In this document: positions 6,085 to 54,276 of the stretch, in pieces
How positions within the stretch are numbered: the stretch's first letter is position 1
Layout: every line of letters begins with the position of its first letter
The notes under the pieces: model-generated
What the model saw: only the letters and a program-made list of their open reading frames with translations
What the model was told of the DNA's origin: nothing
Database searches by the model: none
Assembly: GCF_900580865.1 (NCBI RefSeq)
Contig: NZ_UTBZ01000155.1
Coordinates: 62,001-126,000, forward strand
DNA length: 64,000 nucleotides
From: Pseudomonas viridiflava
GTDB lineage: Bacteria; Pseudomonadota; Gammaproteobacteria; Pseudomonadales; Pseudomonadaceae
Direction of reading: 5' to 3'
Position numbers and translations under genes: made by a program

Positions 6085-6879
6085 TCAGGCCCCGGCCATC
6101 CATTTAGCCAGACCATGGCGACCACTGACCCCGAGCTTGGCCGTGGCGCGTTTCAGGTACGTCTCGATCGAACTGTTCTTGACCCGCAGCTTTTCGGCCA
6201 TTTGCGGCACGGTGCCGCCGGTCAACAAGCCGAGGCAGACTTCTTTCTCGCGCACCGACAGGGCGATGTCGCTGATCGCCAGCCGCTCATCGAACACCTG
6301 CGCCAGCGGCGCCTGATCCAGCTCGGCCAAGGGTTGGCGCGGTTGCCGGGCGAGGATTTGCCGGCTGATCTGCGCATGGCGTTCGATCAGCGGCAGCAAG
6401 GTGTCGGACAGGCGCTTGAGAAACGACAGCTCAGGCAGGGAAAACACCCGCTGGGTGTGCGGTCGGTAAAACGAAATGACGCAACGCCGGTTAGAGGTGC
6501 GTGAGACCAGATTGCATTGATGGACGCTGTGTTGCGGGTGGCGAGGCTGGAGCGAAGCTTTCAGTTGAATCAGCAGCGAGTCGTTCATCTCGATCATTTT
6601 CTGCAACAGCGGATGATCGTCGGGGCTTTCCAACGGATCGGCCGGTGCACAGGTCTGCGTCAGACCAGCGCTGCCCAACGGTTTGATCTCGACCACGCTG
6701 GCCTGTCGCTCATCCAGCGTCCACTCGCTGAGATCCAGCCGGTTGACCGGCACCAGTGTGTCGACCAACTGGAACATGTTCGTGGCAAAGTGATCATTGC
6801 CCGTGCTTGCAATCAGCTCACCCAGTTGCCAGTAGAAATGCGGGTTTTCCATATTGCGAATACTGCCGGTCAGATTCAT
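6085..6879 (-). CDS. LuxR-family transcriptional regulator of the lipopeptide cluster (upstream)
   Basis: The 264-residue regulator has a C-terminal LuxR/GerE helix-turn-helix (about residues 200-260: LSVREKEVCLGLLTGG, VPQMAEKLRVKNSSIETYLKRATAKLGV). The N-terminal 190 residues show no autoinducer-binding or receiver signature. This is the usual form of the LuxR regulators that flank cyclic-lipopeptide NRPS genes and activate them (massetolide, viscosin, arthrofactin and orfamide loci). It is divergent from the first NRPS gene across 477 bp and leads the nodT gene. ATG at 6879 has AAGGAT just upstream. The leader carries Rsm-type GGA motifs. It is a paralogue of the regulator at 48357: both have (S/T)xRExEVCxGLL, ETYLKRA/ESYLKRA and GRHxLxxWM. 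Confidence 0.92.
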   Translation of the reverse strand: MNLTGSIRNMENPHFYWQLGELIASTGNDHFATNMFQLVDTLVPVNRLDLSEWTLDERQASVVEIKPLGSAGLTQTCAPADPLESPDDHPLLQKMIEMNDSLLIQLKASLQPRHPQHSVHQCNLVSRTSNRRCVISFYRPHTQRVFSLPELSFLKRLSDTLLPLIERHAQISRQILARQPRQPLAELDQAPLAQVFDERLAISDIALSVREKEVCLGLLTGGTVPQMAEKLRVKNSSIETYLKRATAKLGVSGRHGLAKWMAGA

Positions 6880-7356: not shown

Positions 7357-10300
7357 ATGCAGCCTACTTCTGCCAACGTGGCGGGCGATCTGTCCGTGCC
7401 TGTCGAGACATTCGCGCTGACCGCTGCCCAGCGGGATATCTGGCTGGACCAACTGAGCCGCGGTGATTCGCCGCTGTATAACATTGGCGGTTACGTCGAG
7501 CTGAGCGGGACGCTGGATCCGGCGTTGATGCAATCGGCGCTTGAATCTCTGGTGGCAGCGAACGACGCCTTGCGCATCGTGCTGCTGGCGGATGTCGGTC
7601 ACGACGGGCTGCCGTTGCAAGGATTCGCACAGACGCTGCCGGTGGCCATGCCGCTGTTTGATTTCAGCGGGCATCCCGATCCCCAGTCGGCAGCACGGGC
7701 GCTGGTCGAAGAGCAGATGGCGCAGGCCTTTGTGTTGAGCGGGCAAGCGTTGTTCCGCTTCTGTCTGATTCGCCTCGATCAGCACCGCCACTGGCTGGCG
7801 GCGCAGGCCCACCATTTGATTATCGATGGTTGGGGTTTCGCGCTGCTGTTCAAGTCGGTGGGCGAGATTTACAGCGCGTTGTGCCGTGGCGAGCATCCGC
7901 GCAGGGCGGCACCGTCCTATGTCGGCTTTATCGAAGATGATGCGCGCTACCATCAGTCACCGCGCTATGAACGTGATCAACGCTATTGGCTGGACAAGTA
8001 CCGCAGCCAGCCTGAACCCTTGTTGATTCCCAGTCATCGCGAACCCCTTGAGCTTGAAGCAGCGCCCAGTCGCATCCACGTCGAGGCTTTTCCTGCGTTG
8101 TTGCACGAGCGCATGAAAGACACCGCGCGGCACCTCGGCGGTTCGGCCTTTCATGTCTTGCTGGCGGCGCTGCATGTGTATTTCAGTCGTACCGCGCAGC
8201 GTGATGAGTGGGTGGTCGGCTTGCCGATTCTCAATCGCTCCGGTGCCCGCTTCAAAGGCACCTTGGGCTTGTTCACCCAGGTCAGTGCGATGCGCATGGG
8301 TTTTGGCCGGGCGCTGTCATTTGGCGAATTGATCAAGGCAATCGGCGATAGCCTGAAGCAGGATTTTCGCCATCAACGCTACCCGCTTAGCGAGATGAAC
8401 CGCGCGCTGGGCCTGTTGCGTGAAGACCGCGCGCAACTGTTCGAGCTTTCGGTGTCCTACGAACAGGACGACCATGACTACCGTTACGGTGAGGCGTCGG
8501 GACACTCGGTCAAGGTCTCCAACCAGCACGAGGCGACACCGCTGGCCCTTCATCTGCGCAGCAACCGTTACAACGACAAGGCCTGGCTGCATCTGGTGTA
8601 CTCGCCGGCCTATTTCTCGGCTGACGAGATCGCGTCGTTGACCGAGCGCTTGTTGCTGATACTGGAGCAGGGTCTGGAATGTCCGGAACTCGCGATCGCC
8701 GATTTCAACCTCAATAGCCCGTCAGAGCTGGCTCTGCTCAATGAGTGGAACGACACCCGCGTCAGTTATCCGCAGGGGCAGCTGATTCATCAGCGATTCG
8801 AGTCGCGGGTGACCGAACAGCCGAACGCCGTGGTCGCGACGTATCAGGGACGAACCCTGAGTTATGCCGAACTGAACCGGCAAGCCAATGCGTTGGCCCA
8901 TCATCTGCTGGGTCTCGGTGTGCGGCCCGATGACCGGGTGGCAATTGTCGCGCGCAGAAGCCTGGAGACATTGGTCGGGCTGCTGGCGATTCTCAAGGCC
9001 GGCGCCGCTTATGTGCCGATTGACCCGGCGCATCCACCCGAGCGCTTGAGTTATCTGCTCAGCGACAGTGCTCCGGTGGCGCTGTTGACGCAAAGTGATT
9101 TACGCGAGCGCTTGTCCGCCACAGCGCTGCCCGTGATCGAGTTGGATCGGCGCGAATGGGCGCTCGACAACGTGACCAATCCCGAGGTGCCGGGGTTGAA
9201 CACGGCCAACCTCGCCTATGTGATTTACACCTCCGGATCAACCGGGTTGCCCAAAGGCGTGATGGTCGAGCACCGCACGCTGGGCAATCTGGTTGATTGG
9301 CACTGCGCGGCATTCGGTCTCGGCCCCGGGCAGCACACCTCGAGTCTGGCCGGTTTCGGTTTCGACGCGATGGCGTGGGAGGTCTGGCCGGCGCTGTGTG
9401 CCGGGGCAACGCTGCATCTTGCACCCGCAAGTGAAGGCAGCGAAGACATTGATGCGCTGCTCGCCTGGTGGCGTGCGCAACCGCTGGATGTCAGTTTCCT
9501 GCCAACGCCGATTGCCGAATATGCCTTCAGCAAACAACTCGATCACCCGACCTTGCGCACCTTGCTGATCGGCGGTGATCGCCTGCGCCAGTTCAATCGT
9601 GCGCAGGGGTTTGCCGTGGTCAACAACTACGGGCCGACCGAAGCCACGGTGGTCGCCACCTCGGGGCTGATCACGCAGGGGCAGCCGTTGCACATCGGCA
9701 AACCGGTGAGCAATGCCACGGCTTACCTGCTCGATGATCAGCAGCGCCCGGTGCCGATCGGCATCATCGGTGAGTTGTATGTCGGCGGCGCCGGAGTTGC
9801 CCGGGGTTATCTGAATCGCCCGGAATTGACCGCCGAACGCTTCCTCGACGACCCGTTTAGTACGCAGCCGGATGCGCGCATGTATCGCACCGGTGATCTC
9901 GCACGGTGGCGCGCCGACGGCAACCTTGAGTACGTCGGTCGTAACGATGATCAGGTGAAAGTACGCGGTGTGCGTGTCGAACTGGGCGAAATCGAAGCGG
10001 CACTCGCCAGCCATGATGCGGTGCAGGAAGCCGTGGTGCTGGTGCGTGACGGCCAACTGTTGGCGTGGTTTACCGAGCGTGAAGCGCTGGACATCCTGCA
10101 ACTGCATGCGCACCTGACCTCGCGTTTGCCAGCCGCGATGCTGCCGGCCGCTTACATCCGCCTGGCGACGTTGCCGCTGACCGCCAACGGCAAGCTCGAT
10201 CGCCAGGCCTTGCCGGCACCGGGGCCGGAAGCGCTGATTCGTCGGCAGTACGAGGCGCCACAAGGTGACGTCGAAATCGCCCTGGCGCAGATCTGGGCAG

Positions 10301-13767: not shown

Positions 13768-13781
13768 CGGCGCACACAAAT

Positions 13782-13874
13782 CCTGTGGGAGCGAGCCTGC
13801 TCGCGAAAGCGGTGTATCAGTCGCCATCAGCATGGACTGACCAGCGCATTCGCGAGCAGGCTCGCTCCCACAGG
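13782..13874. repeat. Pseudomonas REP pair between NRPS genes 1 and 2
   Basis: CCTGTGGGAGCGAGCCTGCT with the following CGCGAA, and its inverted copy ending GCTCCCACAGG, face each other across about 40 bp. This is the classic P. fluorescens-group REP doublet (REPIN form); a close relative lies at 63096-63190. It begins 15 bp after the stop of the first NRPS gene and is inside the presumed operon. It could stabilise the upstream mRNA segment or reduce read-through. The remaining 13875-14024 spacer shows only a modest ribosome site before the next gene. Confidence 0.92.
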
Positions 13875-14024
13875 AGGGGGCTGCGGTGCTCAAGCCGGCG
13901 GCTTGTCCCCGCTTCCCATGTCAGACACCCACGCCCCGATGTTTTAGTTTTTCCAGGCTGCGCGCCGCGTGCACGGACTCGCTGCTGCGCGCTCCTTTTT
14001 TCCGTATTTACAGCAGGTTACCTC

Positions 14025-27037
<13,013 letters not shown>

Positions 27038-27041
<4 letters not shown>

Positions 27042-30000
27042 ATGTGCTCGAACTGTTGGCAACCCTGAAGACAAAAGACATTCAGTTGGCGGTGACCGAT
27101 GAGCAATTGCGCGTCAACGGCAACAAACAGGCGTTGAGCGACCCGGCGCTGCTGGCCGCGCTGCGCGAGCACAAACCGGCGCTGATCGAACTGATCAAGG
27201 CCGGGCAATACTCGGCCACCAAGGCCGGTCAGGTCGAGGTGCCGGCCAACGGCATCGCTGTCGACACCACGCAGATCACCCCGTCGATGCTGACCCTGGT
27301 CGAGCTGGATCAGGCCAGCATCGACCATCTCGTAGCGCAAGTGCCCGGCGGCGCGGCGAATGTGCAGGACATCTACCCGCTGGCGCCGTTACAGGAAGGC
27401 ATTCTTTATCACCACGTCAGTGGCGGTGAAGGCGATCCGTATGTCATGCAGTCGCAATTCGCCTTCGCCAGCCGCGAACGTTTTCAGGCGTTCGCGCAAG
27501 CCTTGCAAACGGTGATCGATCGCCATGACATTCTGCGCACTTCGGTGCACTGGCAAGGCCTGGATGCACCGGTGCAGGTGGTCTGGCGCCGCGCCGAACT
27601 GCCCGTGGAAGAACTCGTGGTGCCTGACGCTGACAGCGATGTGCTGGCGTACCTGCACGAGCGGTTCGACGCCCGACACTTTCGCCTCGACGTCAGCCGC
27701 GCGCCACTTATGCGCCTGGCCCATGCCTGGGACGAAGCCGGGCAGCGGGTGATTGCGACCCTGCTGTTCCACCACATGGCTCTCGACCACTCTGCCCTCG
27801 ACGTGGTGCGGCATGAAATGCGCGCCTGCCTCAGCGGGCAGAGCGAGTTGCTCGGGCGGCCGGTGCCGTTTCGCAATTACGTGGCGCAGGCGCGTCTGGG
27901 TGTCAGCGAAGCTGAGCATGAGGCGTTTTTCCGCGACATGCTCAGCGACATCGACGAGCCGACGTTGCCGTACGGTTTGCAAGACGTGCAGGGTGACGGC
28001 AGCGAGATCACCGAATTGAGCCAGCCGATCGAGCCCCTGCTGGGCCAGCGCTTGCGCGCCCAGGCACGCCAGCTCGGGGTGAGTGCCGCGAGCCTGTTTC
28101 ACCTCGGTTGGGCGCAGGTGCTGGCAGCGTTGACCGGCAAGCAGCAGGTGGTGTTCGGCACGGTGCTGATGGGGCGCATGCAGGGCGCCGAAGCCATTGA
28201 CCGTGCGCTGGGGATCTTCATCAACACCTTGCCGTTGCGGGTGAATGTCGACAGCGCCGACGTGCGTGCCGCCGTCAACGCGACCCATGCGCGGCTGACC
28301 TCGCTGATGCGCCATGAATACGCGCCGCTGGCCTTGGCCCAGCGCTGCAGCAACGTGGTCGCACCGACGCCGCTGTTCAGCACGCTGCTCAATTACCGCC
28401 ACAGCCACAACGTCACCACGGTCAGCGCTGAAACACTCGCAGCGTGGGAGGGCATTGCCACCCTGCACTCGGAGGAGCGCACCAACTATCCGCTGACCCT
28501 GAGCGTCGATGACTTCGGCGACGCGTTCAGTCTGACCTTGCTGGCGAGCACGCAAATCGACCCGCAGCGGATTTGCGCCTACATGCACTGCGCGCTGGGA
28601 AATCTGCTGCTGGCACTGGAGCAGGCGCCGCAAACACCGGTCAATCAACTGCCGGTTCTGCCGACAGCGGAGCTTGAGCAAGTGCTGGTCGGCTTCAACG
28701 CTACGCAAATGAATTTCCCGCCGGCCCAGACTCTTCAGCAACGCTTCGAAGCCCAGGTTGCCGAGCGGCCGGAAGCGCTGGCAGCAGTGTTTGCCGACGC
28801 ACAATTGACCTACGCCGAGTTGAACCGCCACGCCAATGCCCTGGCGCATCACCTGATCGAGCGCGGGGTAAAACCCGACGACCGCGTGGCCATCGTCGCC
28901 CGCCGGGGGCTCGATACGCTGATCGGGCTGGTCGCGATTCTCAAGGCCGGCGCTGGTTACGTGCCGATCGATCCGGCACACCCGGCCGAGCGCCTGAACT
29001 ATCTGCTCGGCGACAGCGCGCCGGTAGTCGTCCTCACCCAAACCGATCTGCGTGAGCGCTTGCCGGCGCTGGACGTGCCGGTGATCGACCTCGACCGCTG
29101 CACCTGGCCACTGACCCGCACGCTCGACCCGCATGTGCCGGGCCTGACCGCCTCACACCTCGCGTACGTGATCTACACCTCCGGCTCCACTGGCCTGCCC
29201 AAAGGTGTGATGGTCGAGCATCACACCTTGAACAACCTGGTCGATTGGCACTGCACGGCCTTCGACCTGTGCGCCGGTCGCCACACTTCAAGCCTCGCCG
29301 GGTTCGGTTTCGACGCGATGGCCTGGGAAGTCTGGCCGGCGCTGTGCGCAGGTGCGACGTTGCATCTGGCGCCAACCCATGACGGCAACGAAGACATCGA
29401 CGCGCTGCTGGCGTGGTGGTGCGCGCAACCGCTGGACGTGAGCTTTCTGCCGACGCCAGTGGCCGAATACGCCTTCAGCCAGAACCTCGAACACCCGACC
29501 CTGCGCACGCTGCTGATCGGCGGCGACCGCTTGCGCCAGTTCAATCGCAACCAGCATTTCGACGTGATCAACAATTACGGCCCGACCGAGGCCACTGTGG
29601 TTGCGACCTCGGGACGGGTCGACAGCGGCGATGCGTTGCACATCGGTCAACCGGTGAGCAACGCCACGGTGTACCTGCTTGATGAGCAGCAACGCCCGGT
29701 GCCGATGGGCGTGGCGGGCGAACTGTACGTCGGCGGGGCGGGTGTCGCTCGTGGTTACCTCAATCGAGCGGAAATGACCGCCGAGCGTTTTCTGCGTGAC
29801 CCGTTCAGCCGCTTGCCGAACGCGCGTATGTACCGCACCGGTGACCTTGCGCGCTGGCGCGAGGACGGCACGCTCGAATACCTGGGGCGCAATGACGATC
29901 AGGTGAAAATCCGTGGCGTGCGCATCGAACTGGGGGAAATCGAAACCTGCCTCAATCAGTTGCCGGGGATTCAGGAAGCCGTGCTGCTGGCCCGCGAAGA

Positions 30001-33000
30001 TCAGCCCGGTCAGCCGCGACTGGTGGCGTATTTCACCGAACAAGCACAGGTTGAAGCGCTGCCGGTCGGCGAGTTGCGCGCGCAACTGCTGAGCCGCTTG
30101 CCGGAGTACATGGTGCCGGTGGCCTTCGTCAAACTCGCCGCACTGCCGTTGACCGCCAATGGCAAGGTCGACCGCAAAGCCTTGCCGGCGCCGGAACTGT
30201 CGGCACTGTTCACTCGCGAATACGCGGCGCCCGAAGGCGAGGTGGAAACCGCGCTGGCGCAGATCTGGGCCGATGTGCTGCAGGTTGAGCGGGTCGGGCG
30301 TCAGGATCACTTTTTCGAACTCGGCGGCCATTCGCTGCTGGCGATGCGCATGGTCTCGCAAGTGCGCCAACGGCTCGGCGTCGAACTGGCCTTGGCTGAG
30401 CTGTTCGCCAACGCCGAACTGGCGGCGGTCGCTGCGGTACTGAGCGAGGCGGGGCGCTGCACGCAACCAGAGATTGTGCCGGTGCCGCGTGGCGGCGCCT
30501 TGCCGTTGTCATTCGCCCAGCAACGCCTGTGGTTTCTGGCGCAAATGGAAGGCGCCAATACCGCGTACAACATTCCCGTGGCCCTGCGTTTGCGTGGCCG
30601 TCTCGACGACGCTGCGCTACAGCGTGCACTGGCACGGATCGTTGCCCGCCATGAAACCCTGCGCAGCCGTTTCGCCCAGTTCAATGATCAGGCGCAAGTG
30701 CTGATCGCTCCGGTCGACAGCGGCCTGTTGCTGCGTGTCGAAGACCTGCGCCAACACCCGCAACCGGATCAGGCCTTGCAGGCGCTGATTCAGGGCGAAG
30801 CGTCCGGGCCGTTCGACTTGCAGGACGATGCGCTGATTCGCGGTCGCTTGGTGCGCCTCGCCGACGATCATCATGTGCTGTTGCTGACGATGCACCACAT
30901 CATTTCTGATGGTTGGTCGATGGGCGTTTTGACCCGCGAACTGATGGCGCTGTATCAGGCGTTCAGTCAGGGGCAGGCGGATCCACTGCCGCCGCTGGCG
31001 CTGCAATACACCGATTACGCGGTGTGGCAGCGGCGCTGGCTGAGCGGCGAGGTGCTGCAGCGCCAGAGCGAATACTGGCAGCAGACGCTGGCGGGCGCGC
31101 CGGCGCTGTTGCTGTTACCGACCGATCGTGCACGACCGGCGCAGCAGGATTACGCCGGCAGCAGCGTCGAAGTCGTGTTCGATGAACGTTTGAGCGCCGG
31201 CCTCAAGGCGCTGGGTCAGCGTCATGGCGTGACGCTGTACATGACGCTGATGAGCGCCTGGGCGATGCTGCTCAGTCGTTTGTCCGGTCAGTCGGAGGTG
31301 GTGATCGGCTCGCCCGTGGCCAACCGCAGCCGTGCCGAGATCGAAGGTTTGATCGGCATGTTCGTCAACACCCTGGCCTTGCGCATCGACACCTCGGGCG
31401 AACTCAGCGTCGAAGCGCTGCTGACCCGAGTCAAGGCGCTGACGCTGGCGGCGCAGGCGCATCAGGATCTGCCGTTCGAGCAGGTGGTGGAAATTACGCG
31501 GCCACTGCGCAGTCTGGCGCACAGCCCGGTGTTCCAGACGTTGCTCAGTTGGGACGGTCTGCAAGGCCCGGCGCTGGCCCTTGGCGATTTGACTCTGGAA
31601 GGCGTGGCGGAGCCGAGTCACTTCGCCAAGTTTGATCTGTCGCTGAACCTGAGCGAGTCGAACGGTGTGATTCGTGGTTCGCTGGAGTACGCCACGGCGC
31701 TGTTTGACGAATCGACGGTGCAGCGTTTTGCCGGCTATTTCCAGCGTCTGTTGCAGGCGATGGTCGCCAATGATCAAACGGTGCTGGAACACGCACCGCT
31801 ATTGGCAGAGGACGAACAACAGCGGCTGCTGAATGAGTTCAATGCCACGGCAGTGGATTACAACCTTGAGCAGACCCTGCACGGTCTGTTCGAGGCGCAA
31901 GTGGGGCGCACGCCGCAGGCTCCGGCGGTAGTCGCCGGTGAGCAGCGCTTGACCTATGCCGAGCTGGACGCCAAGGCCAGCCAACTGGCGCGGCACCTGC
32001 GTAGCTTGGGTGTGCAGGCGGATTCGCGGGTGGCGATTTGCGTCGAGCGCGGTCTGGACATGGTTGTCGGCCTGCTGGCGATCCTCAAGGCTGGCGGTGG
32101 TTATGTGCCGCTGGACCCGGCGTATCCGCTGGAACGTCTGGCCTACATGCTGGACGACAGCGCGCCGCTCGCGGTGTTGGTGCAGGGTTCCACTCGCGGG
32201 CTGCTCGGTGACGTCGCTGTGCCTGTGATCGATCTCGATCAAGCGCACTGGCAGTCGCTGCCGAGCGACACGCTGCCCATCGCCGAGTTGACCCCGCAAC
32301 ACATGGCGTACGTGATCTACACCTCCGGTTCGACCGGCCAGCCAAAAGGCGTGATCAACGAACACACCGCGGTGGTCAACCGCTTGCTGTGGATGCAGGA
32401 CGCCTATCCACTGACAGCGGCGGACACGGTGTTGCAGAAGACTCCGTTCAGTTTCGACGTGTCGGTGTGGGAGTTTTTCTGGCCGCTGATGACCGGCGCA
32501 CGTCTGGTCATGGCGCAGCCCGGTGGCCACAAGGACCCGCTGTATCTCAGCGAAATCATCGAGCAAGAACGAATTACCACGCTGCACTTCGTGCCGTCGA
32601 TGCTCGAAGTGTTCCTTGCCCATGGCGACACCCAGCGCTGCTCGGAACTGCGTCAGGTGATGTGCAGCGGCGAAGCATTGCCGGGCAGTCTGGTGCGGCG
32701 GTTCAAACGGCAATTGCCGGGCAGTGCGTTGCACAACCTCTATGGCCCGACCGAAGCCGCCGTCGACGTGACTGCATGGAACTGCGCCGGGCCGCTGGAG
32801 CAAACCCCGGACAACACGCCGATCGGCACACCGATTGCCAACACCCGCATGTATATCCTCGATGGCCAACAACAACCGGTGCCGCAAGGCGTTGTCGGTG
32901 AGCTGTACATCGGTGGCGTGCAGGTGGCCCGTGGTTACCTCAACCGACCAGAACTGAGCGCGGAACGCTTCCTCAATGATCCGTTCCAGACCAATGGGCG

Positions 33001-36000
33001 TATGTACCGCACCGGCGACGTCGCCCGCTATCTGGCCGACGGCAACATCGAATACCTGGGCCGCAACGACGACCAGGTGAAAATCCGTGGCTTGCGCATC
33101 GAACTGGGTGAAATCCAGGCACGCCTGACCCAGATCGAGGGGGTGCAGGAAACGGTGGTGCTGGCCCGCGAAGACGTGCCGGGTGACAAGCGTCTGGTCG
33201 CGTACTACACCGGGCAGCAGCTGGACATCGAGACGCTGCGCAGCCATCTGCTGGAGCATCTGCCGGACTACATGGTGCCTGCGGTGTTCGTGCACCTCGA
33301 TACGCTGCCACTGAGCCCGAACGGCAAACTCGATCGCAAGGCATTGCCGGCCCCGGATCTGGCGGCATTGGCTGCACGTGAATACGAGGCACCGGTCGGC
33401 GAAGTGGAAACCCTCCTTGCTGCGCTCTGGGCCGATTTGCTCAACGTGGAGCGGGTAGGGCGTCACGACCACTTTTTTGAGCTGGGCGGGCACTCGCTGA
33501 TGGCGGTGAATCTGCTGGCGAAGATGCGTCGTGCCGGCCTCAGCGCCGACATTCGCGTGCTGTTCAACCAGCCGACACTCGCCGCACTGGCGGCGGCCGT
33601 TGGTGGTGAGCCGCAAGCCGAGGTCCCGGCCAACCGCATTACGCCGGACTGCACGCGTATCACGCCGGAACTGCTGCCACTGCTGACGCTCGATCAAGCG
33701 AGCCTTGACCGCATCGTTGCCAGCATCCCCGGCGGCGCGGCCAATGTGCAGGACATTTACCCGCTGGCGCCGTTGCAGACGGGCATTCTGTTCCATCACC
33801 TGGCGGCCGCGCAGGGCGACCCCTACGTGTTGCAGGCACAGTTTGCGTTCGCTGATAAACAGCGCCTGAACACCTTCACCGAGGCCTTGCAGAAAGTCAT
33901 CCAACGCCACGACATTCTGCGCACCTCGCTGTTCTGGGAAGGCCTTGAAGACCCGGTGCAAGTGGTTTGGCGTCAGGCGTCACTGGCCTGCGAAGGTATT
34001 GCGCTGGAGGACGTGAACGGCGATGCACTGGCGCAGTTGCGCGCTCGTTTCGATGCCGGCCATTACCGCATGGCCGTCAATCAGGCGCCGCTGATGCGCG
34101 TGGTCCACGCGTGGGACGCGGTCAATCAGCGGGTTGTCGCGTTGTTGCTGTTCCATCATCTGGTGATGGACCACGTCGCGCTGGAAGTGCTGCAACAGGA
34201 AATGCAGGCCTTCCTCAGCGGCCAGCCGCAACGTCTCGCCGAGCCGGTGCCATACCGCAATTACGTGGCGCAGACCTTGGCCGGAATGAGCGATCAGCAG
34301 CATGAAAGCTTCTTCCGCGACATGCTCGGTGATGTCGACGAGCCAACCTTGCCGTACGGCCAGGCCCCGGCACAGGACGGGCTGGCTGAGCAGGCGCGGT
34401 TAACCCTCGACCTCGGTCTGAGCCGCGACATCCGCCAGCAAGCGCGGCGCCTGGGTGTCAGCGCCGCGAGCCTGATGCACCTGGCCTGGGCACAGGTGCT
34501 CGGGCAGTTGTCGGGCCACGACGACGTGGTGTTCGGCACGGTATTGCTTGGGCGCTTGCACGGTGGCGAGGGCGCCGAGCGTGCCCTCGGGGTGTTTATC
34601 AATACCTTGCCGCTGCGCATCGATTTGAGCGCGCACAGCGTCAAAGGCGCGGCATTGGCTACCCATCAACGGCTGAGCCAATTGCTCCAGCACGAACACG
34701 CGCAGCTGGCGCGCATCCAGCATTGCAGCGCGATGGCGCCGACCACGCCGCTGTTCAGCACCTTGTTCAACTATCGCCACGGGGCTGCGGCGTCGTCGAG
34801 TTCGGCCGAGGCTGCGGCGGCCTGGCACGGCATGCAATTGCTGGAAGCCGAGGAACACAGCAACTATCGCCTGACCCTTAGCGTCGACGACCTCGGCGAA
34901 GGCTTCAGCCTCAGCGCATTGGCCGGCGCCGGCATCGACGCACGGCGCACCTGCGACTATCTGCAATGTGCCCTGCACGGCCTTGTGCAAGCGCTGGAAC
35001 AGGCACCGCATCAAGGCTTCGAACGCTTGTCGATCCTGCCGGCCGCAGAGCGCGAACAGCTGTTGATCGGCTTTAATGCTAGCCACGCCGATTACCCTCA
35101 GGGGCTGACGATCGGCCAGCGTTTCGAGCAGCAAGTGGCTGAGCGACCGCACGCGCTGGCGGCGATTTTTGCTGGCGCGAGCCTGAGTTACGCCGAACTC
35201 GACCAGCAGGCCAACGCCTTGGCGCATCATCTGATCGAAGCGGGTGTGCGGCCTGATGATCGTGTGGCCATCGTTGCCCGTCGCGGCCTCGATACGCTGG
35301 TCGGGCTGGTGGCGATTCTCAAGGCGGGCGCCGGTTATGTGCCGGTGGACCCGGCGCATCCAGCGGAGCGCCTGAACTATCTACTGGAGGACAGCGCGCC
35401 GGTTGCGGTGTTGACCCAGAGCGAACTGCGCGCACGCCTGCCGGCGCTGCAAGTGCCGGTGATCGACCTTGATCTGCACCAGTGGCCAAACAGCAGAATC
35501 GACACGCCGTCAGTGCCGGCGCTGACGCCGCAACACCTGGCGTATGTGATCTACACCTCCGGCTCCACCGGACAGCCCAAAGGCGTGATGGTCGAGCACC
35601 GCACCCTGAGCAATCTGCTCGACTGGCATTGTGCGGCGTTCGATCTGCGCGCCGGCAGCCACACTTCAAGCCTCGCCGGCTTCGGTTTCGACGCCATGGC
35701 CTGGGAAGTCTGGCCGGCGTTGTGCGTCGGCGCGACCCTGCATCTGGCGCCGGCCCACGATGGTAACGAAGACATCGATGCACTGCTCGACTGGTGGCGC
35801 GCGCAGCCGCTGGATGTGAGCTTCCTGCCGACGCCGGTGGCCGAGTACGCCTTCAGCCAGGAGCAGGCGCATCCAACCCTGAAAACCTTGCTGATCGGTG
35901 GAGATCGTCTGCGCCAGTTCAACCGCAACCAGTCCTTCAAGGTGATCAACAACTACGGCCCGACCGAGGCCACGGTGGTTGCCACGTCCGGGTTGATCGA

Positions 36001-39000
36001 GGCCGGGCAGGTGCTGCACATCGGCAAACCGCTGAGCAATGCCAGTGTTTACCTGCTCGATGAGCAGCAGCGTCCGGTGCCACTGGGGGTGATGGGCGAG
36101 TTATACGTTGGCGGTGCCGGCGTCGCCCGTGGCTATTTGAACCGCCCGCAAATGACCGCCGAGCGCTTTCTGCATGACCCGTTCAGCCGCTTGCCGAACG
36201 CGCGGATGTACCGCACCGGTGACCTTGCGCGCTGGCGCGAGGACGGCACGCTGGAATACCTGGGGCGCAATGACGATCAGGTGAAAATCCGTGGCGTGCG
36301 CATCGAACTTGGCGAAATCGAGACCTGCCTCAATCAGTTGCCGGGGATTCAGGACGCCGTGCTGCTGGCCCGTGAAGATCAGCCCGGCCAGCCGCGACTG
36401 GTGGCGTATTTCACCGAAGCCGCGCAAGGCGACGCGCTGAACGTCGGCGACTTGCGTGCGCATCTGCTGGGGCAACTGCCGGAGTACATGGTGCCGGCCG
36501 CTTTTGTCCGGCTTGACGCTTTACCGCTGACGGCCAACGGCAAAGTCGACCGCAAGGCGTTGCCGAAACCGAATCTGGCCGCGTTGTTCACCCGCGACTA
36601 CGCCGCGCCGCAGGGCGAGACCGAAACCATCCTGGCGCAGATCTGGGCCGAGGTGCTGCAGGTCGAACGGGTAGGGCGCCATGATCATTTCTTCGAACTC
36701 GGCGGGCATTCGTTGCTGGCCATGCGCATGGTCGCGCAGGTCCGGCAACGGTTGGGTCTGGAGTTGGCGTTGGCTGATCTGTTTGCCAATGCCGAACTGG
36801 CGGCGGTCGCTGAGTGCCTGGCGGGTGCCGAGCGCAGCACCCAGCCGTCGATTGTGCCGGTAACGCGTGACGGCACCTTGTCCTTCGCCCAGCAACGCCT
36901 GTGGTTCCTCGCGCAAATGGCGGGCGGCAATTCGGCGTACAACATCCCCATCGCCCTGCGCTTGCGCGGTCGACTCGACATCGATGCGCTGCAAGCGGCG
37001 CTGGCGCGCATCGTGACCCGCCACGAAACCCTGCGCAGCCGCTTTATCAGTCGCGATGACACTGCGCAGGTGACGATTGCGCCGGTCGACAGCGGTCTAC
37101 TGCTGCGTGTGGAAGATTTGCGCCAGCAGCCTCAGGCCGAGGACACCTTGCACAGGTTGATGGCGAAGGAGGCCTCGACGGCGTTTGATCTGCAGCACGA
37201 TTCGCTGATTCGTGGACAGTTGCTGCGTCTGGCCGACGAGCACCATGTGCTGTTGCTGACCGTGCACCACATCGTCGCTGACGGTTGGTCGATGGGCGTG
37301 CTGACCCGCGAGTTGATGGCGTTGTATCAGGCATTCACCCGGGGTCAGCCCGATCCGCTGCCAGCGCTGACGCTGCAATACGGCGACTATGCGGTGTGGC
37401 AACGACGCTGGCTCAGCGGTGACGTGCTGCAACGGCAAAGTGATTACTGGCAACAAACCCTCGACGGTGCTCCGGCGCTGTTGACGCTGCCCACCGATCG
37501 TCCGCGTCCGGCGCATCAGGATTATGCCGGCAGCAATCTCGAAGTGGCGCTGGACCAAAATCTGAGCGCCGCACTCAAAGCCCTGAGCCAGCGGCATGGC
37601 GTGACCCTGTTCATGACCCTGACGAGTGCCTGGGCACTGCTGATGAGTCGTCTGTCCGGGCAGGCCGATGTGGTGATCGGTTCGCCGGTGGCCAACCGCA
37701 GCCGCACTGAAATCGAAGGCTTGATCGGCATGTTCGTCAACACCCTGGCGCTGCGTATCGATACCTCGGGCGAGCCGAGTGTCGAAGCGCTGCTGGCACG
37801 GGTCAAGGCGCGGACACTGGAGGCTCAGGCGCATCAGGACTTGCCGTTCGAGCAGGTGGTGGAAATCACCCGACCGTCGCGCAGCCTGGCGCACAGTCCG
37901 CTGTTCCAGACCACGCTGAGCTGGGACAGTCACATTGGGCCGCAACTGGCGCTGGGCGAGCTGACACTGGAAGCTGTAGCCGGCGCCGACGAGATCGCCA
38001 AGTTCGACCTGACGCTGACTCTGGGCGAGGTCAATGGCGTGATTCGCGGCTCGCTGAACTACGCCACGGCGCTGTTCGACGAATCGACGATCCGCCGCTT
38101 TGTCGGTTATTTCCAGCGGCTGCTGCAAGCGATGGTCGGCAATGATCACGCGGTACTCGAACACGTGCCGTTACTGGCGGCGGATGAGCGTGAGCGCTTG
38201 CTCGTCGAGTTCAACGCCACCGCGCGCGATTACCCGCAGACCCTGACGGTGCACGGGATTTTCCAGCAACAAGCGGCGGCGCATCCAAAGGCTGTGGCGG
38301 CGGTGCATGGCGCGCAATCGCTGAGTTATTTCGAACTGAACGCGCAGGCCAATCGCCTGGCTCATCACCTGATCGGCCAAGGCGTGCAACCGGGTGATCA
38401 CGTGGCGATCCTGCTGCCACGCTCGCTGGAACTGCTGGTGGCGCAACTGGCGATTGCCAAGTGCGCGGCGGCCTATGTGCCGCTGGATATCCATGCACCG
38501 AGCGAACGTCAGGCGTTCATGGTCGAGGACTGTCGGGCGGCCGCGCTGCTGACCCTGAGCGGCGAAGTCATCGATTACGCCGCGCCGCGTATCGATCTGG
38601 ACAGGCTGAAACTCAGTGATCAACCCACGCATAACCCTAACCTGGTGCAGTCTTCCGAGTCGCTGGCGTACATCATGTACACCTCCGGCTCCACCGGCAC
38701 GCCGAAGGGGGTGATGGTGCCGCATCGTGGCATCGGCCGTTTGGTGCTCAATAGCGGTTACGCCGATTTCAATGCGCAGGATCGCGTGGTGTTCGCCTCG
38801 AACCCGGCGTTCGATGCCAGCACCATGGACATCTGGGGGCCGCTGCTCAACGGTGGTCGCGTGGTGATCATCGACCATCAGACCCTGCTGGATCCACAGG
38901 CCTTCGGTCGTGAGTTGAGCGCCAGTGGCGCGACGATCCTGTTCGTCACCACGGCGTTGTTCAACCAGTACGTGCAATTGATCCCGCAAGCCCTCAAAGG

Positions 39001-42000
39001 CCTGCGCATTCTGCTCTGTGGTGGCGAGCGCGGTGATCCGGCGGCGTTCCGCACGCTGCTGGCCGAAGCGCCGCAACTGCGCATCGTGCATTGCTACGGA
39101 CCGACCGAAACCACCACCTACGCCACGACGTTCGAAGTGCGGGAAGTGGCGGAAAATGCCGAGAGCGTGCCGATCGGTGGACCGATTTCCAACACTCAGG
39201 TCTATGTGCTCGATGCTCGGCAGCAACTGGTGCCGATGGGCGTGACCGGTGAGCTGTATATCGGCGGGCAGGGCGTGGCGCTGGGTTATCTGAACCGAGC
39301 CGATCTGACCGCCGAGAAATTCCTCCGCGATCCGTTCAGCGATAAACCCGGCACGTTGCTGTATCGCACCGGCGACCTCGCGCGCTGGCTGGCGCCGGGG
39401 CAACTCGATTGCGTCGGGCGCAACGACGATCAGGTAAAAATCCGTGGTTTCCGCATCGAACTGGGTGAGATCGAAAACCGCTTGCTGAACTGCGCGGGGA
39501 TCAAGGAAACCGTGGTGCTGGCGCGCCGCGACGCTCAGGACGCCACGCGTCTGGTCGCCTATTTCACCGCGCACGAGGGACAACTCGACAGCGTTGAGCT
39601 GCACGCCGAACTGTCGGCGCGCTTGCCGGAGTACATGCTGCCGACGGCCTGGGTGCAACTGGAGGCGTTGCCGCTGAACAACAACGGCAAGATCGACCGC
39701 AAGGCACTGCCGGCACCGACCCCGGCCGCCATGCTCAGCCGGGCCTATGTGGCGCCGGTCACGGCGCTGGAGGAAAACCTGGCGCGCATCTGGGCCGGGT
39801 TGTTGCAGGTCGAGCAGGTGGGACGACACGACAATTTCTTTGAGCTAGGCGGGCATTCGTTGCTGGCGATGCGCATGCTGTCGCAGGTTCGCCAACAGCT
39901 GGATGTGGAGCTGACCTTGGCCGAGCTGTTCGCCAACCCGGAACTGGCGGCCGTGGCACAGGTGTTGAGCCGCGCCGCACGCAGCACTTTGCCGGAGATT
40001 GTGCCGGCAGCGCGTGAGCAAGCGTTGCCGCTGTCGTTTGCGCAACAGCGCCTGTGGTTCCTCGCGCAAATGGACGGTGGCAACACGGCGTACAACATTC
40101 CGCTGGGCCTGCGTCTGCGCGGGCGGCTGGATGAAGACGCGCTGCAACGGGCAATGGCGCGTATTGTCGAACGCCACGAAACCCTGCGCAGCCGCTTCAC
40201 CCAGGTCGACGATCAAGCGCAGGTGCTGATCGTGCCGTCGGAGGCCGCTCTGTTGCTGCAGGTTGAAGATTTGCGCCAGCACCCGCAGGCCGATAATGCC
40301 TTGCGTGGGCTGATCGAGGAGCAAGCCAGCGCACCGTTCAATCTTGCCCGCGATTCGCTGATTCGCGGGCGACTGGTGCGTCTGGCCGACGATCACCATG
40401 TGCTGTTGCTGACGCTGCACCACATCATCTCCGATGGCTGGTCGATGGGCGTGCTGACCCGTGAGCTGGCGGCGCTGTATCAAGCTTTCAGCCATGACCA
40501 GCAAGACCCGTTGCCAGCGCTGGCGCTGCAGTACAGCGATTACGCGGTGTGGCAACGCCGTTGGCTCAGTGGCGAGGTGCTGCAACGGCAGAGCGATTAC
40601 TGGCAGCAGACACTGGCCGGTGCACCGGCGTTGCTGACGCTGCCGACCGATCGTCCGCGTCCGGCGCAACAGGACTTTGCCGGCAGCCATATCGACGTAG
40701 TGCTGGGCGCGCCGCTGAGTCGCGGACTGAAAGCGCTGTGCCAACGTCGCGCAGTGACGCCGTACATGGTGATCCTCAGTGCCTGGGCGATGTTGCTCAG
40801 TCGCTTGTCCGGGCAGACCGACGTGGTCATCGGCTCGCCGGTGGCCAACCGCACTCGCGCCGAGGTCGAAGGCTTGATCGGCATGTTCGTCAACACCCTG
40901 GCCCTGCGCATCGACACGTCTGGCGGGCTGAGCGGCGAAGCGTTGCTGGCACGGGTCAAGGCGCAAACCATGGCGGCGCAGGCGCATCAGGATCTTCCGT
41001 TCGAACACGTGGTGGACATCAGCAAACCGCTGCGCAGTCTGGCCCACAGTGCGCTGTTCCAGACTCTGCTGAGCTGGGACAACAATGACGGCCCGAGCCT
41101 GCAACTCGGCGACCTGACGCTGGAAGGCGTGCCGGGGGAAAGCCACTTTGTGAAGTTCGACCTGTCGTTGAGTCTGGGCGATAGCGCCGATAGCGCCGAT
41201 GGCGTTCGCGGCTCGCTGCGTTATGCCACGGCGTTGTTCGATGAATCGACGGTGCGGCGTTTTGTCGGTTACTTCCAGCGCTTGCTCGCTGCGCTGGTGA
41301 GCGATGAACAAACGCTGCTGGAGCAGGTGCCGTTGCTGGCGCAGGACGAACGTCAGCGCCTGTTGCACGACTTCAACGCGAGCGAAGTCGATTGCCCGCT
41401 GGAACAGCCGTTGCACTGCTTGTTTGAAGCACAGGTACGGGCTAAACCCGAGGCCATCGCCGTGCAGTCCGAATCCGGGTGCCTCACCTATCGCGAACTC
41501 AATGCACGGGCCAATCAACTGGCTCATCACTTGCGCGAACAGGGCGTGCAGCCGGATTCACGCGTGGCGATCTGCGTCGAGCGCGGGCTGGATCTGGTGG
41601 TTGGTCTGCTCGGCATTCTGAAGGCCGGCGGGGCCTATGTGCCGCTGGATCCGGGATATCCGGCGGAACGTCTGGCCTACATGCTCAAGGACAGCGCGCC
41701 GGTCGCGGTGCTGGTGCAAGCGGCGACGTGTTCGCTGTTCGATGCGCCTGCATCAACGTTGATCGACCTCGATCAAGGTCACTGGCAACAGCTGCCCGAT
41801 CATGATCCGCAGGTGCCCGGCCTGAGCGCCGCGAACCTGGCCTACATGATCTACACCTCCGGCTCCACCGGCCTGCCGAAAGGCGTGATGATCGAGCATC
41901 GCAGCGCCTGCAACATGGTGCATTGGGGCTCGCAGATCAGTGCGCCAACCGAGCATGGTGCGTTGCTGCAAAAGGCCCCGTTCAGCTTCGACAGTTCGGT

Positions 42001-44875
42001 GTGGGAGATTTTCTGGCCGCTGTGTTCCGGCCTGCGTCTGGTGCTGGCACGGCCCGATGGCAACCGCGATTCGGCTTATGTGGTGCAGGCGATTCGCGAG
42101 CAGCAAGTGACTGTCGTCAAGTTCGTGCCGGCGCTGCTCCAGGATTTCATTGAGCAGGCCGACGTCAGCCAGTGCACCAGCCTCACTGATGTGCTCAACG
42201 GTGGTGGCGAACTCAGCGCGGCGCTGGCGCGGCAGGTGCGCGATCGCTTGCCGTGGGTGCGGTTGCACAACGTTTACGGCCCGACCGAAACCACGGTCGA
42301 CAGCACCGGCTGGACCCTTGAACCGGATCAGACGGCGCCGCACAGCGTGGTGCCGATCGGCAAGGCGCTGAGCAACACGCGTTTGTACGTGCTCGATGCC
42401 TACGATCAACCGGTGCCGCAGGGTGTCAGCGGCCAGTTGCACATTGGCGGTGTGGGTGTGGCGCGCGGTTATCACCGATTGCCGCAGATGCAGGCTGAGC
42501 GTTTCATCGACAGCCCGTTCGTGGCCGGTGATCGGCTGTACCGCACCGGCGACCTGGCGCGCTACAACAACGAGGGTGATCTGGAGTTCCTCGGACGTAA
42601 CGACTTCCAGATCAAGCTGCGTGGCTTGCGTCTGGAACCGGGCGAAATCGAAGCGCGGCTGATCGAACATCCGGCGATCCGCGAAGCAGTGGTAATGGTG
42701 CGCGACGAGCGTCTGGTCGCCTGGTACACCCTGCGCGCCGGGGTGCAGGCGCCAGGCCTGGACGTCTTGCGCGCTCATGTGCTGGAGCGTTTGCCGGAAT
42801 ACATGGTGCCCGGCGCCTATGTGCTACTCGACGCTTTGCCGCTGACCCCCAACGACAAGGTCGATCGCAAGGCATTGCCGGAGCCGGGCGCAGACGCAGT
42901 GATCAACCGTCCTTATGCTGCGCCGCAAGGCGCGGTGGAAACCGCGATGGCGCGGATCTGGGCGGACGTGCTCGGCGTCGAGCAGGTCGGTCGTCACGAC
43001 AACTTCTTCGAATTGGGTGGGCATTCGTTGCTCGCGGTGCGGCTGGTCAATCTGCTGCAACGCGGCGGATTGCAAGTGTCGCTGGCCGAATTGTTCCAGC
43101 ACCCGAGCATCGAGTCGGCGGCAGCGTTGCTCGCACAGGACGAAATGGCCGGGCAACCGGAGGGGCTGGTCGTAGTACGTGCCGGGGATATCGGTACGCC
43201 GCTGTTCCTGGTGCATGAATTCAGTGGCCGCGACGTGTATTTCCCGACGCTGGCGCAGCACATTGGCGGCGAGTTTGCGATTTATGGCCTGCCCGGCGTG
43301 CCGTTTGGTCAGCCACAGCTACGCACAATCGAATGCATGGCCACGCGGATGGCCGGGATCATCCGATCGGTGCAGCCACACGGGCCGTATCGTCTGGCGG
43401 GGTGGTCGTTCGGCGGCGTGCTGGCCCATGAAGTTGCCCAGCAATTGCTGGGTCAGGACCAGCCGGTTGACTTCATCGGCATGCTCGACAGCTACGCGCC
43501 CAACTCGCTGGCCCAGGACAAGGCGATGTGGAGCGGCAAGGATCTCGACAAGCGCCAGCTGCTCGGGCATTGCCGGGGGCGTGCGCTGATGCTCGGTGCC
43601 GATGGCGCCGCCGCGTTGGCGTCGGTCGAGGCTCTGGAAGCCGAGATGGAGCAGTTGGATTTCCACGCGTTGTTCCAGCGTTGCCAGTTGCAGCAACTGA
43701 CCGATCCGGAACTGGCCACGGTCAGCGCGGCCGATGCCTGGCATTACTTCGATCGCGAGGCGGCGCATCGCCTGGCCTTGGCGCATTACCGGGTCAGCCC
43801 GGCGAGCCAGACGATTCATCTGTTCCGCGCGCAGGCGCTGATGGACGGGCAGTCTGTGCCAAGTCCGACACGCGGTTGGGAGGAGCGCTTCGACAGTCGT
43901 CTGTTGCAGTGCATCGATATCCCCGGGGATCACCGCAGCATGATGAAAAATCCGCATATCAAGGCGTTGGGGCGGGCGATCACTCAGGCACTTGAGGCGG
44001 TAGTCGCGCCTGCCACTGTGGTGTATCAGCCGCTGCTGACGATCCAGAGCGGACACGTCGGACATGCGCCGATTTTCTGCGTGCCCGGGGCGGGTGACAG
44101 TGTCACCGGGTTCATTCATCTGACCGAAGCGATTGGCCCCGAGTGGCCGATCATCGGCCTGCAACCGCGCGGGCTGGACGGCAACAGTGTGCCGCACAGT
44201 CAGGTTGAAGCCGCTGCTGCGTTCTACCTGCAAGCCATCGCGCAGGTTTACCCGCAAGACCCGGTGCACCTGATCGGACATTCCTTTGGCGGTTGGGTGG
44301 CGCATGCCATGGCGGCGCAGTTGCAAGCGGCCGGGCGCGAGGTGGCTTCGCTGACGTTGATCGACAGCGAAGCGCCGGGCGGCAACGGCACAGCAGGCAA
44401 ACCGTACACCGGCACGGCGGCACTGGAACGCTTGATCGACACCCTGCAACTGTCCAGTGGCAAGTCGCTGGAAATCGATCCGCAGGTTTTTGCCGACGCT
44501 GATGACGCTACGCAAATGCGCTTGCTGCATGCCGGGATGGTGCGCGCCGGCGTGCTGTCGGAGCGCGCCGCGGCGGATGCGATGCATGGCCCGGTCCGCA
44601 CCTTCGCCACAGCCTTGCGCACGGTCTATCAACCGCAACTGGCCTACACCGGGCCGGTGCGGCTGGCGCTGGTCGATGACCCGACGCTGGATGCCTGGGG
44701 CAATCAGCGCGAGCAAGCGGCGATGGTCGAAGGCTGGCAGCGCCAAGTTGCGGATCTGGCGGTGTGGTACGGGCCGGGCAACCACTTCACGATTCTCAAG
44801 GCGCCCAACGTCTTCAGTCTCGCGGCGTGGTGGCATGACGGCCTGAAAGTGCCGGCCGGGCAAGTGGTTTCCTGA
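27038..44875 (+). CDS. Lipopeptide NRPS, terminal enzyme (modules 7-11: Leu, Ser, Leu, Ile/Val, Asp/Glu) with tandem thioesterases
   Basis: The 5945-residue enzyme has docking-(C-A-T)x5-TE-TE. GTG start 27038 overlaps the previous stop (GTGA) with GGAG upstream. It opens with a TubC-like docking domain (MNVLELLATLKTKDIQLAV). C domains: module 7 dual (ILYHHVSGGEGD), 8 LCL (HHIISDGWS near 1287), 9 dual (ILFHHLAAAQGD), 10 LCL (HHIVADGWS near 3411), 11 LCL (HHIISDGWS near 4462). A codes: 7 and 9 D-A-W-F-L-G-N-V-V (Leu); 8 D-V-W-H-M-S-L-V-D (Ser); 10 D-A-M-F-L-G-C-T-Y (Ile/Val-like); 11 D-S-W-K-L-G-V-V-D (acidic, as module 2). The first TE has GWSFGG (Ser5457) and the second GHSFGG (Ser5749). Tandem TEs are typical of Pseudomonas cyclic lipopeptides; they release and cyclize the peptide. 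Module 11 has LEPGEIE instead of LELGEIE in motif A8. Confidence 0.95.
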
Positions 44876-44912: not shown

Positions 44913-44941
44913 TTCACCCCTGAACGGACTTGTGGTCATTT

Positions 44942-50825: not shown

Positions 50826-51036
50826 GAACATCTCCTTTTTTCATACGTAATGCATCACAACAGTATGACAAGGATCGCCAGAAAGTTCGGAACAGAGCGC
50901 GCGCTGTTGTTGAATTGTCCTTTTTGAGTTGACGGTGAAACACTTTTCAGCCGATTTATCCCGTCCCTGTGCGTCAGTAATCTGTACCCAACTTGAACGC
51001 AACAACAAATTCAAAAACTCAAAAGGGAAGCAGACC

Positions 51037-54176: not shown

Positions 54177-54276
54177 AACGTTCTCCTGTTTTTGTGAAAG
54201 TGTCAGGAGATAGGTCGGATGAGAAATGAAAACCGGACACAAACAAGAATGGTTTTCATAAAATAATTTCTCGGCA

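What the first reader, a model, noticed from the sequence alone, without database searches (positions are those of the whole stretch)
7357..44875. Eleven-module lipopeptide assembly line predicted to make a lokisin-type (amphisin family) lipoundecapeptide
Reading Stachelhaus positions by hand gives DAWFLGNVV (modules 1,4,5,7,9), DSWKLGVVD (2,11), DFWNIGMVH (3), DVWHMSLVD (6,8) and DAMFLGCTY (10). The order is Leu-acidic-Thr-Leu-Leu-Ser-Leu-Ser-Leu-Ile/Val-acidic. With Asp at 2 and 11 this is exactly lokisin as I recall it; amphisin and tensin differ at residue 8 (Gln), arthrofactin at residue 9 (Ile). The organism is therefore probably a lokisin-group producer.
Basis: partly seen in the sequence, partly recalled or inferred. 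Interest (0 to 1): 0.72.

Follow-up and report, generated by a model that had tools for sequence, protein, structure and literature searches.

The report
Lokisin/anikasin lipopeptide synthetase with swapped lokC
This is a Pseudomonas assembly line for a known soap-like antifungal peptide (lokisin/anikasin), ordinary in itself, but its last gene appears to have been exchanged as a block between related species, which switches the product between two known peptides.

Summary
In detail: three intact NRPS genes (2+4+5 modules, tandem thioesterases) with OprM/LuxR upstream and MacA/MacB/LuxR downstream. The hand-read codes are right except that position 278 of the Leu modules depends on alignment.

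The lokisin reading is supported. All 11 codes equal those of P. fluorescens HKI0770, producer of anikasin (published as LDTLLSLSLID, the lokisin sequence). The milkisin producer UCMA 17988 (LDTLLSLQLIE) has the same code at A2 (Asp) but others at A8 and A11. C-domain types predict D1-6, L7, D8, L9-11, as predicted for COR10 lokisin. DNA cannot separate lokisin from anikasin.

The unexpected part is evolutionary. The window's lokC is 95% identical to HKI0770 but 77-79% to 10 of 11 named tensin-type strains (AKS31 81%), whereas lokA, lokB, macAB and four core genes do not separate the product types. Between 5 lokisin-type and 15 tensin-type strains there are 773 fixed differences in lokC and none in lokA or lokB. 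The block begins just after LokC's docking domain and ends inside the last thioesterase. Recombination of the terminal synthetase gene best explains this. My searches listed no report of it for amphisins; pyoverdine has a precedent.

The parts
4658..6052 (-). outer-membrane efflux protein (OprM/NodT-like, lokT/pleC position)
   Evidence: Pfam PF02321, E 1.4e-50
6085..6879 (-). LuxR-type regulator (lokR position)
   Evidence: Pfam GerE PF00196
7357..13767 (+). lokA: modules 1-2 (Leu, Asp), first C domain in the starter position, 2136 aa
14025..27041 (+). lokB: modules 3-6 (Thr, Leu, Leu, Ser), 4338 aa; start moved from 13785
27038..44875 (+). lokC: modules 7-11 (Leu, Ser, Leu, Ile, Asp) and tandem thioesterases, 5945 aa
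27050..27193 (+). TubC_N-type docking domain at the N-terminus of LokC
   Evidence: Pfam PF18563, aa 5-52, E 5.7e-7
27256..44532 (+). exchanged block: first to last site fixed between 5 lokisin-type and 14 tensin-type strains (AKS31 left out; with it 27631-44532)
   Evidence: 60-nt profile
30419..33580 (+). module 8 (Ser), approximate span; densest in fixed differences; Gln in tensin-type relatives
   Evidence: borders worked out by hand from T-motif positions
39944..43111 (+). module 11 (Asp), approximate span; Glu in tensin-type relatives
   Evidence: borders worked out by hand from T-motif positions
43112..44875 (+). tandem thioesterases TE1-TE2
44930..46090 (+). MacA-type membrane-fusion protein
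   Evidence: Pfam HlyD_3
46093..48051 (+). MacB-type ABC exporter (pleB position)
   Evidence: Pfam MacB_PCD, ABC_tran, FtsX
48357..49103 (-). second LuxR-type regulator (luxR2 position)
   Evidence: Pfam GerE; homologue in 22 of 24 named loci; none seen in PS655 and GM80, whose loci end 4.5 and 3.3 kb past lokC

Best explanation
An intact amphisin-family NRPS cluster. LokA's first C domain acylates Leu1 with a 3-hydroxy fatty acid. Modules 1-11 then add Leu-Asp-Thr-Leu-Leu-Ser-Leu-Ser-Leu-Ile-Asp; dual C/E domains at modules 2-7 and 9 invert residues 1-6 and 8; the tandem thioesterases release the product, in this family as a Thr3-residue 11 lactone; and OprM/MacA/MacB export it under LuxR control. 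The product is lokisin/anikasin or a stereoisomer. Compared with tensin-type sister species, the difference in product lies in lokC, an old, strongly diverged allele that has moved between closely related species by homologous recombination. It replaced almost the whole gene, from just after the docking domain to inside TE2, and so changed Gln8/Glu11 to Ser8/Asp11 (or the reverse) while lokA, lokB and the exporter stayed. Shown: domains, codes, C-domain motifs, fixed-difference pattern, tree conflict. Inferred: substrate loading, acylation, cyclisation, export, direction of exchange.
For: Product: all 11 codes identical to HKI0770, whose product is published as LDTLLSLSLID. UCMA 17988 ties DSWKLGVVD to Asp2, DAWQFGVVD to Gln8 and DGWKFGVVD to Glu11 through its published milkisin sequence. 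C-domain motifs give D1-6/L7/D8/L9-11, the pattern predicted for COR10 lokisin; for amphisins such predictions are reported to match chemistry. Exchange: fixed differences between 5 lokisin-type and 15 tensin-type strains are 773 of 17820 sites in lokC, 0 of 6408 in lokA, 0 of 13128 in lokB; 0 of 3114 in macA+macB (4 vs 11 strains) and 0 of 11790 in rpoD, gyrB, rpoB, carB (5 vs 11, 10 for rpoB). Random 5/15 splits give at most 2 in lokC (0 of 1000 reach 773). Mean third-position identity lokisin-lokisin / tensin-tensin / lokisin-tensin, with 8 tensin-type strains: lokA 78.9/79.9/79.1, lokB 79.5/79.2/78.8, lokC 87.3/79.3/62.2, macA 76.6/82.8/79.8, macB 81.5/81.9/81.6, core 93.0/92.3/92.7. Lokisin-type monophyly is rejected by lokA+B (AU p 5.9e-113 with 25 strains, 1.6e-34 with 29), macAB (1.8e-4) and four core genes (2.5e-7), while lokC groups them with support 100.
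Against: No chemistry for this strain. [quoted passage not shown] Ile-type domains may also take Val or Leu. rpoD+gyrB alone does not reject monophyly (p 0.099). Core genes may recombine too, and the four-gene tree leaves the window's own place open. The lokisin-type set was chosen partly by lokC likeness, so the lokC clade itself is no independent test; the rejections on the other genes are. TH43 and G060 have the same predicted product from a mosaic lokC, so whole-gene replacement is not the only route.
Confidence: 0.88

Rival explanations
1. The cluster makes a tensin- or amphisin-type peptide (Gln8 and/or Glu11).
For: By lokA, lokB and macAB the window is as close to tensin-type strains as to lokisin-type ones.
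Against: A8 and A11 codes are the Ser and Asp ones of HKI0770, not the Gln and Glu ones of UCMA 17988; lokC is 94.8% identical to HKI0770 and 78.6% to UCMA 17988.
Confidence: 0.04
2. Main product lokisin/anikasin with sizeable Glu2 or Glu11 (or Val10) congeners from relaxed A domains.
For: Mixed Asp/Glu loading is reported for stechlisin A2 and arthrofactin A11, and Val or Leu in Ile-type domains.
Against: A2 and A11 codes are identical to those of HKI0770, published with Asp at both; minor congeners were not assessed.
Confidence: 0.3
3. The lokC pattern is vertical: two old lineages, one lokisin-type and one tensin-type, and no exchange.
For: rpoD+gyrB alone does not reject one clade (p 0.099).
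Against: lokA+B, macAB and four core genes reject it, and none of the eight other genes examined has a fixed difference.
Confidence: 0.04
4. The lokC likeness is convergence or purifying selection on function.
For: Fixed differences are densest around A8.
Against: Third codon positions show it (87.3% against 62.2%); fixed sites fall on all three codon positions (287/230/256) and also in the Leu and Ile modules, whose substrate is the same in most of both types.
Confidence: 0.02
5. Piecewise exchange: either whole lokC moved first and TH43/G060-like mosaics then regained tensin-type modules 7 and 9, or module 8 and the module 10/11-TE end moved separately and the whole-gene type came later.
For: At diagnostic sites TH43 is lokisin-like over about 30.0-34.2 kb and from about 39.7 kb on, G060 over about 30.7-34.5 and 37.5-44.5 kb, both tensin-like elsewhere in lokC; AKS31 is lokisin-like to about 30.7 kb and tensin-like after.
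Against: Order and direction cannot be read from these data; the window itself shows no mosaic within the block.
Confidence: 0.4

Closest known systems
Anikasin cluster, P. fluorescens HKI0770
   Same: All 11 A-domain codes; gene order; downstream luxR; lokC 94.8% nucleotide identity.
   Different: lokA 89.1%, macA 87.3% identity; HKI0770 lies in another branch of the lokA+B tree and, weakly supported, of the core tree.
Lokisin cluster, Pseudomonas sp. COR10 and P. koreensis S150 (lokABC)
   Same: 2-4-5 modules, tandem TE, lokT/lokR upstream, macAB downstream, predicted peptide and D/L pattern.
   Different: COR10 is described as lacking a downstream luxR, which the window has. Sequences not compared: neither strain was among the loci returned and MK534107 was not looked up.
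Milkisin/tensin clusters, e.g. P. crudilactis UCMA 17988
   Same: lokA 89.9%, lokB 90.0%, macB 93.8% identity; same codes except at 8 and 11.
   Different: Gln8 and Glu11; lokC 78.6%.
Arthrofactin (MIS38) and Ile9 relatives
   Same: Ser8 and Asp11 codes in HMWF021, G278 and the P. koreensis type strain.
   Different: Ile code at module 9 there; Leu in the window. MIS38 itself was not compared.
Pyoverdine NRPS partial substitution in the P. fluorescens complex (PMC11366639)
   Same: Abstract reports partial substitution of NRPS genes by horizontal transfer.
   Different: Siderophore, not lipopeptide; only abstract and outline seen.

Membership tests
Amphisin family (11:9 lipoundecapeptides) | three NRPS genes with 2, 4 and 5 modules | tested here: met
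Amphisin family (11:9 lipoundecapeptides) | lipid-accepting starter C domain and tandem thioesterases | tested here: met
   Module 1 C domain in first position with HHLIIDG and without the C/E motif ('starter' rests on position and recalled motif knowledge, no starter-specific model was run); two TE stretches
Amphisin family (11:9 lipoundecapeptides) | OprM-like upstream, MacA-MacB downstream, LuxR upstream and optional LuxR downstream | tested here: met
   published layout
Amphisin family (11:9 lipoundecapeptides) | producer in the P. koreensis subgroup | tested here: met
   rpoD 98.3% to HKI0770, which PMC6636606 places with the P. koreensis group; core tree among P. crudilactis, P. neuropathica, EA105, with the P. 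koreensis type strain in the set. Caveat: no strain of another subgroup was included
Amphisin family (11:9 lipoundecapeptides) | nine-residue lactone ring, Thr3 to residue 11 | not testable with these tools
   needs NMR or MS
lokisin/anikasin sequence type | Ser8, Leu9, Asp11 (against Gln8, Ile9, Glu11) | tested here: met
   codes identical to HKI0770 at all 11 modules; different from UCMA 17988 at 8 and 11
lokisin/anikasin sequence type | D/L pattern D1-6, L7, D8, L9-11 | tested here: met
   C/E motif at modules 2-7 and 9, LCL motif at 8, 10, 11; a prediction only
lokisin as distinct from anikasin | stereochemistry of the compound | not testable with these tools
   lokisin stereochemistry is itself reported as incomplete
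tensin/milkisin type | Gln8 and Glu11 codes | tested here: not met

The most novel reading that the evidence does not exclude
In this clade the lipopeptide product is set by which of two anciently diverged alleles of one 17.8-kb synthetase gene a strain carries. The alleles are shared across species and exchanged nearly whole, with one crossover just past the docking domain and one inside TE2, or in pieces (module 8 plus the module 10/11-TE end). The pattern is consistent with selection that maintains both products, and the joint state of residues 8 and 11, across species.
Probability: 0.7. Interest if true: 0.55.

Novelty: new member of a known kind. Interest (0 to 1): 0.42.

Why it matters
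As a cluster it adds one more lokisin/anikasin producer. The lokC pattern matters more. A survey of this family concluded from concatenated NRPS trees that the systems tightly coevolved with their hosts, and another proposed the MacB exporter gene as a proxy for lipopeptide structure. In this clade neither holds for the Ser8/Asp11 against Gln8/Glu11 difference: macB carries no fixed difference (4 against 11 strains), and residue 8 needs at least 6 changes on the lokA+B tree within 22 strains. It also points to places where nature cuts and rejoins NRPS genes, just after a docking domain and near module borders, which is of use to NRPS engineers.

Tried and rejected
A plasmid search with a 4-kb NRPS stretch gave 14 records, the five listed covering at most 6% of the query. 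A viral-contig scan found no relative. A papers search for code strings found three papers, none on Pseudomonas lipopeptides by title and none with DSWKLGVVD; I used named producer strains instead. Aligning a 64-residue GrsA fragment by MAFFT misplaced position 278; anchoring on the window's own KFVP motif mended it. A two-gene core tree was too weak. The first four-gene core tree is invalid: in four strains the longest ORF at rpoB was not rpoB; redone. I considered that LokC was shortened in the window (5963 against 5987-5997 residues stop to stop in most relatives); most of that is the stretch before the start codon (29 columns). Misassembly of the window was considered: the pattern recurs in four other genomes, one of them (G135) a single contig, so I reject it.

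Rows dropped: TH15 (broken frames, 10 of 11 A domains read), N40 (8 read), the P. koreensis type strain (only lokC fetched) and P. botevensis (a bananamide producer by the papers) were left out of trees or counts where incomplete; AKS31 has no rpoB match and HMWF021 no gyrB match at the thresholds used. TH43 and G060 have the same predicted peptide but were left out of the five 'lokisin-type' strains because their lokC is mosaic. P. parakoreensis, with the same 11 codes, belongs to a more distant lineage (57.6/63.3/68.4% third-position identity for lokA/B/C) and was left out too.

Full report
OBSERVATION. The window holds three NRPS ORFs at 7357-13767, 13785-27041 and 27038-44875 with 2, 4 and 5 T-domain motifs and two GxSxGG thioesterase motifs at the end of the third. 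Pfam confirms the domains and adds a TubC_N docking domain at residues 5-52 of the third protein. Upstream on the other strand are an outer-membrane efflux protein and a LuxR regulator; downstream are MacA, MacB and a second LuxR. lokB should start at ATG 14025, which leaves 4338 aa: the first part of the in-frame stretch from GTG 13785 is poorly conserved and contains a REP-like inverted pair.

CODES. Numbering was anchored on GrsA/1AMU. Over the A domains of the window and 26 relative clusters the window reads DAWxLGNVV at 1, 4, 5, 7, 9; DSWKLGVVD at 2, 11; DFWNIGMVH at 3; DVWHMSLVD at 6, 8; DAMFLGCTY at 10.

PRODUCT. I used named strains with published products rather than code tables. HKI0770 (anikasin; published as Leu-Asp-Thr-Leu-Leu-Ser-Leu-Ser-Leu-Ile-Asp, passages of PMC8788793) is identical at all 11 codes, and so are PS655, CROZ-RG-20F, TH43 and P. 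parakoreensis; G135 and G060 differ by one letter in the Thr code. UCMA 17988 (milkisin, Asp2, Gln8, Glu11 by MS and NMR; passages of PMC5985324) has DSWKLGVVD at 2, DAWQFGVVD at 8, DGWKFGVVD at 11. So the code shared by modules 2 and 11 of the window is the one that loads Asp2 in a characterised relative, and Gln8 and Glu11 are disfavoured by code. Among 28 relatives with all 11 domains read (31 relatives; three incomplete), 9 are Ser8-Asp11 with Ser6, 1 (H1h) is Gln6-Ser8-Asp11, 16 are Gln8-Glu11, 1 (G438) is Gln8-Asp11 and 1 (RIT288) is Gln8 with an unassigned code at 11. Residue names there are my assignment of codes.

STEREOCHEMISTRY. Modules 2-7 and 9 have the extended HHxxxxxGD motif of dual C/E domains; 1, 8, 10 and 11 have HHxxxDG (the meaning of the motifs is recalled). 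This predicts D at residues 1-6 and 8, L at 7, 9, 10, 11, the pattern tabulated as predicted for COR10 lokisin (PMC6636606 passages). Such predictions are reported to match chemistry in the amphisin group (PMC9431178 passages). Lokisin's own stereochemistry is incomplete, so lokisin and anikasin cannot be told apart from DNA.

A SWAPPED GENE. In 500-nt steps the window is about 90% identical to HKI0770 and to three tensin-type strains alike across most of lokA and lokB; over 27501-44500 it is 91-98% to HKI0770, PS655 and G135 and 71-88% to the three tensin-type strains shown. Whole-gene identities to the window (lokA, lokB, lokC, macA): HKI0770 89.1, 90.4, 94.8, 87.3; EA105 91.7, 91.8, 76.8, 93.9; UCMA 17988 89.9, 90.0, 78.6, 92.8. 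Five strains (window, HKI0770, PS655, G135, CROZ-RG) against 15 strains of the same clade with Gln8 and Glu11 codes have 773 fixed differences among 17820 comparable sites of lokC, 0 of 6408 in lokA, 0 of 13128 in lokB; with the strains available (4 against 11) 0 of 1158 in macA and 0 of 1956 in macB; and 0 of 1848, 2610, 4089, 3243 in rpoD, gyrB, rpoB, carB (5 against 11, 10 for rpoB). In 1000 random 5/15 splits the largest count in lokC is 2. Third-position identities with 8 tensin-type strains tell the same (core).

TREES. Holding the five together is rejected by lokA+B (25 strains p 5.9e-113; 29 strains p 1.6e-34), macA+B (four of the five; p 1.8e-4) and rpoD+gyrB+rpoB+carB (p 2.5e-7, 0% of 200 bootstrap trees). 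rpoD+gyrB alone does not reject it (p 0.099). On lokC they form a clade with support 100, and lokC rejects the window's lokA+B group (p 1.7e-4). Ser8 against other at residue 8 needs 8 changes on the lokA+B tree of 29 and 1 on the lokC tree; within the clade of 22, 6 and 1. The set was partly chosen by lokC likeness, so only the rejections are independent.

BREAKPOINTS AND MOSAICS. Without AKS31 there are 988 fixed sites from 27256 to 44532, i.e. from just after the docking domain (27050-27193) to inside the second thioesterase. AKS31 is mostly lokisin-like at the diagnostic sites up to about 30.7 kb and tensin-like after, near the module 7/8 border; its product codes remain tensin-type. TH43 is lokisin-like over about 30.0-34.2 kb and from about 39.7 kb on (mixed over 38.2-39.7), G060 over about 30.7-34.5 and 37.5-44.5 kb; elsewhere in lokC both are tensin-like, and both have lokisin-type codes. 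So in these 22 strains Ser8 goes with Asp11 in 7 of 7 and Gln8 with Glu11 in 15 of 15, by whole-gene and by piecewise exchange. Outside the clade the link is not strict (G438: Gln8 with the Asp code at 11). Direction, donor and selection are not shown.

NOVELTY. The cluster is a new member of a known kind. For the exchange: PMC9948697 (sections 5, 7, 15, 16, 18 and passages) reports module dynamics, a Gln-Ser switch at residues 6 and 8 of this family with possible recombinational exchange, and possible NRPS gene exchange among putisolvin producers, but states congruence of NRPS concatenates with rpoD for amphisins. PMC8788793 (passages) has no occurrence of 'recombin' or 'horizontal' in its main text. 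Searches (listings; two showed 15 of 23 and 15 of 91) named no report of lokC exchange in amphisins by title or abstract start; supplementary files were not readable here, so it may be visible there. Partial NRPS substitution is reported for pyoverdines (PMC11366639, abstract) and recombination in NRPS generally (PMC8097286, abstract).

Noticed in passing
window 13785-13871 and 63100-63187: Two REP-like inverted pairs (GTGGGAGCGAGCCTGCTCGCGAA, 0-1 mismatch; none in 100 shuffles); the first lies between lokA and lokB.
   Followed up: partly
L081-L082 (AKS31), lokC: Chimeric lokC: mostly lokisin-like to about the module 7/8 border, tensin-like after.
   Followed up: partly
L087-L088 (TH43) and L107-L108 (G060): Mosaic lokC: lokisin-type module 8 and C-terminal end (module 11-TE in TH43, modules 10-11-TE in G060); G060's lokA is also diverged (66.5% at third positions to the window).
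   Followed up: partly
window about 22001-22500 (module 5, lokB): P155 and 28B5 fall to 76-77% identity here against about 90% on either side: possibly a small local replacement in the Leu5 module.
   Followed up: no
L228-L229 (G438): Codes suggest Val-like at 4, Gln8, Ile9 and Asp11: a rare combination; PMC9948697 names Val4 for oakridgin and nepenthesin.
   Followed up: no
L099-L100 (RIT288) module 11; L095-L096 (P. atagonensis) module 2: Unassigned acidic-type codes DNWKLGMVD and DGWQFGVVD.
   Followed up: no
L085-L086 (TH15): lokA and lokC frames are broken in this assembly: sequencing error or decayed cluster.
   Followed up: no
window 49239-50831 and 57339-58886: Two dCache-GGDEF diguanylate cyclases beyond the second LuxR; a close homologue of the first lies beside the cluster in 3 of 24 named loci (UCMA 17988, p13D5, N40; 90-98%).
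   Followed up: partly
window 51738-55269: TonB-dependent receptor with STN domain and FecR-like regulator: probably an iron/siderophore uptake unit next to the cluster.
   Followed up: no
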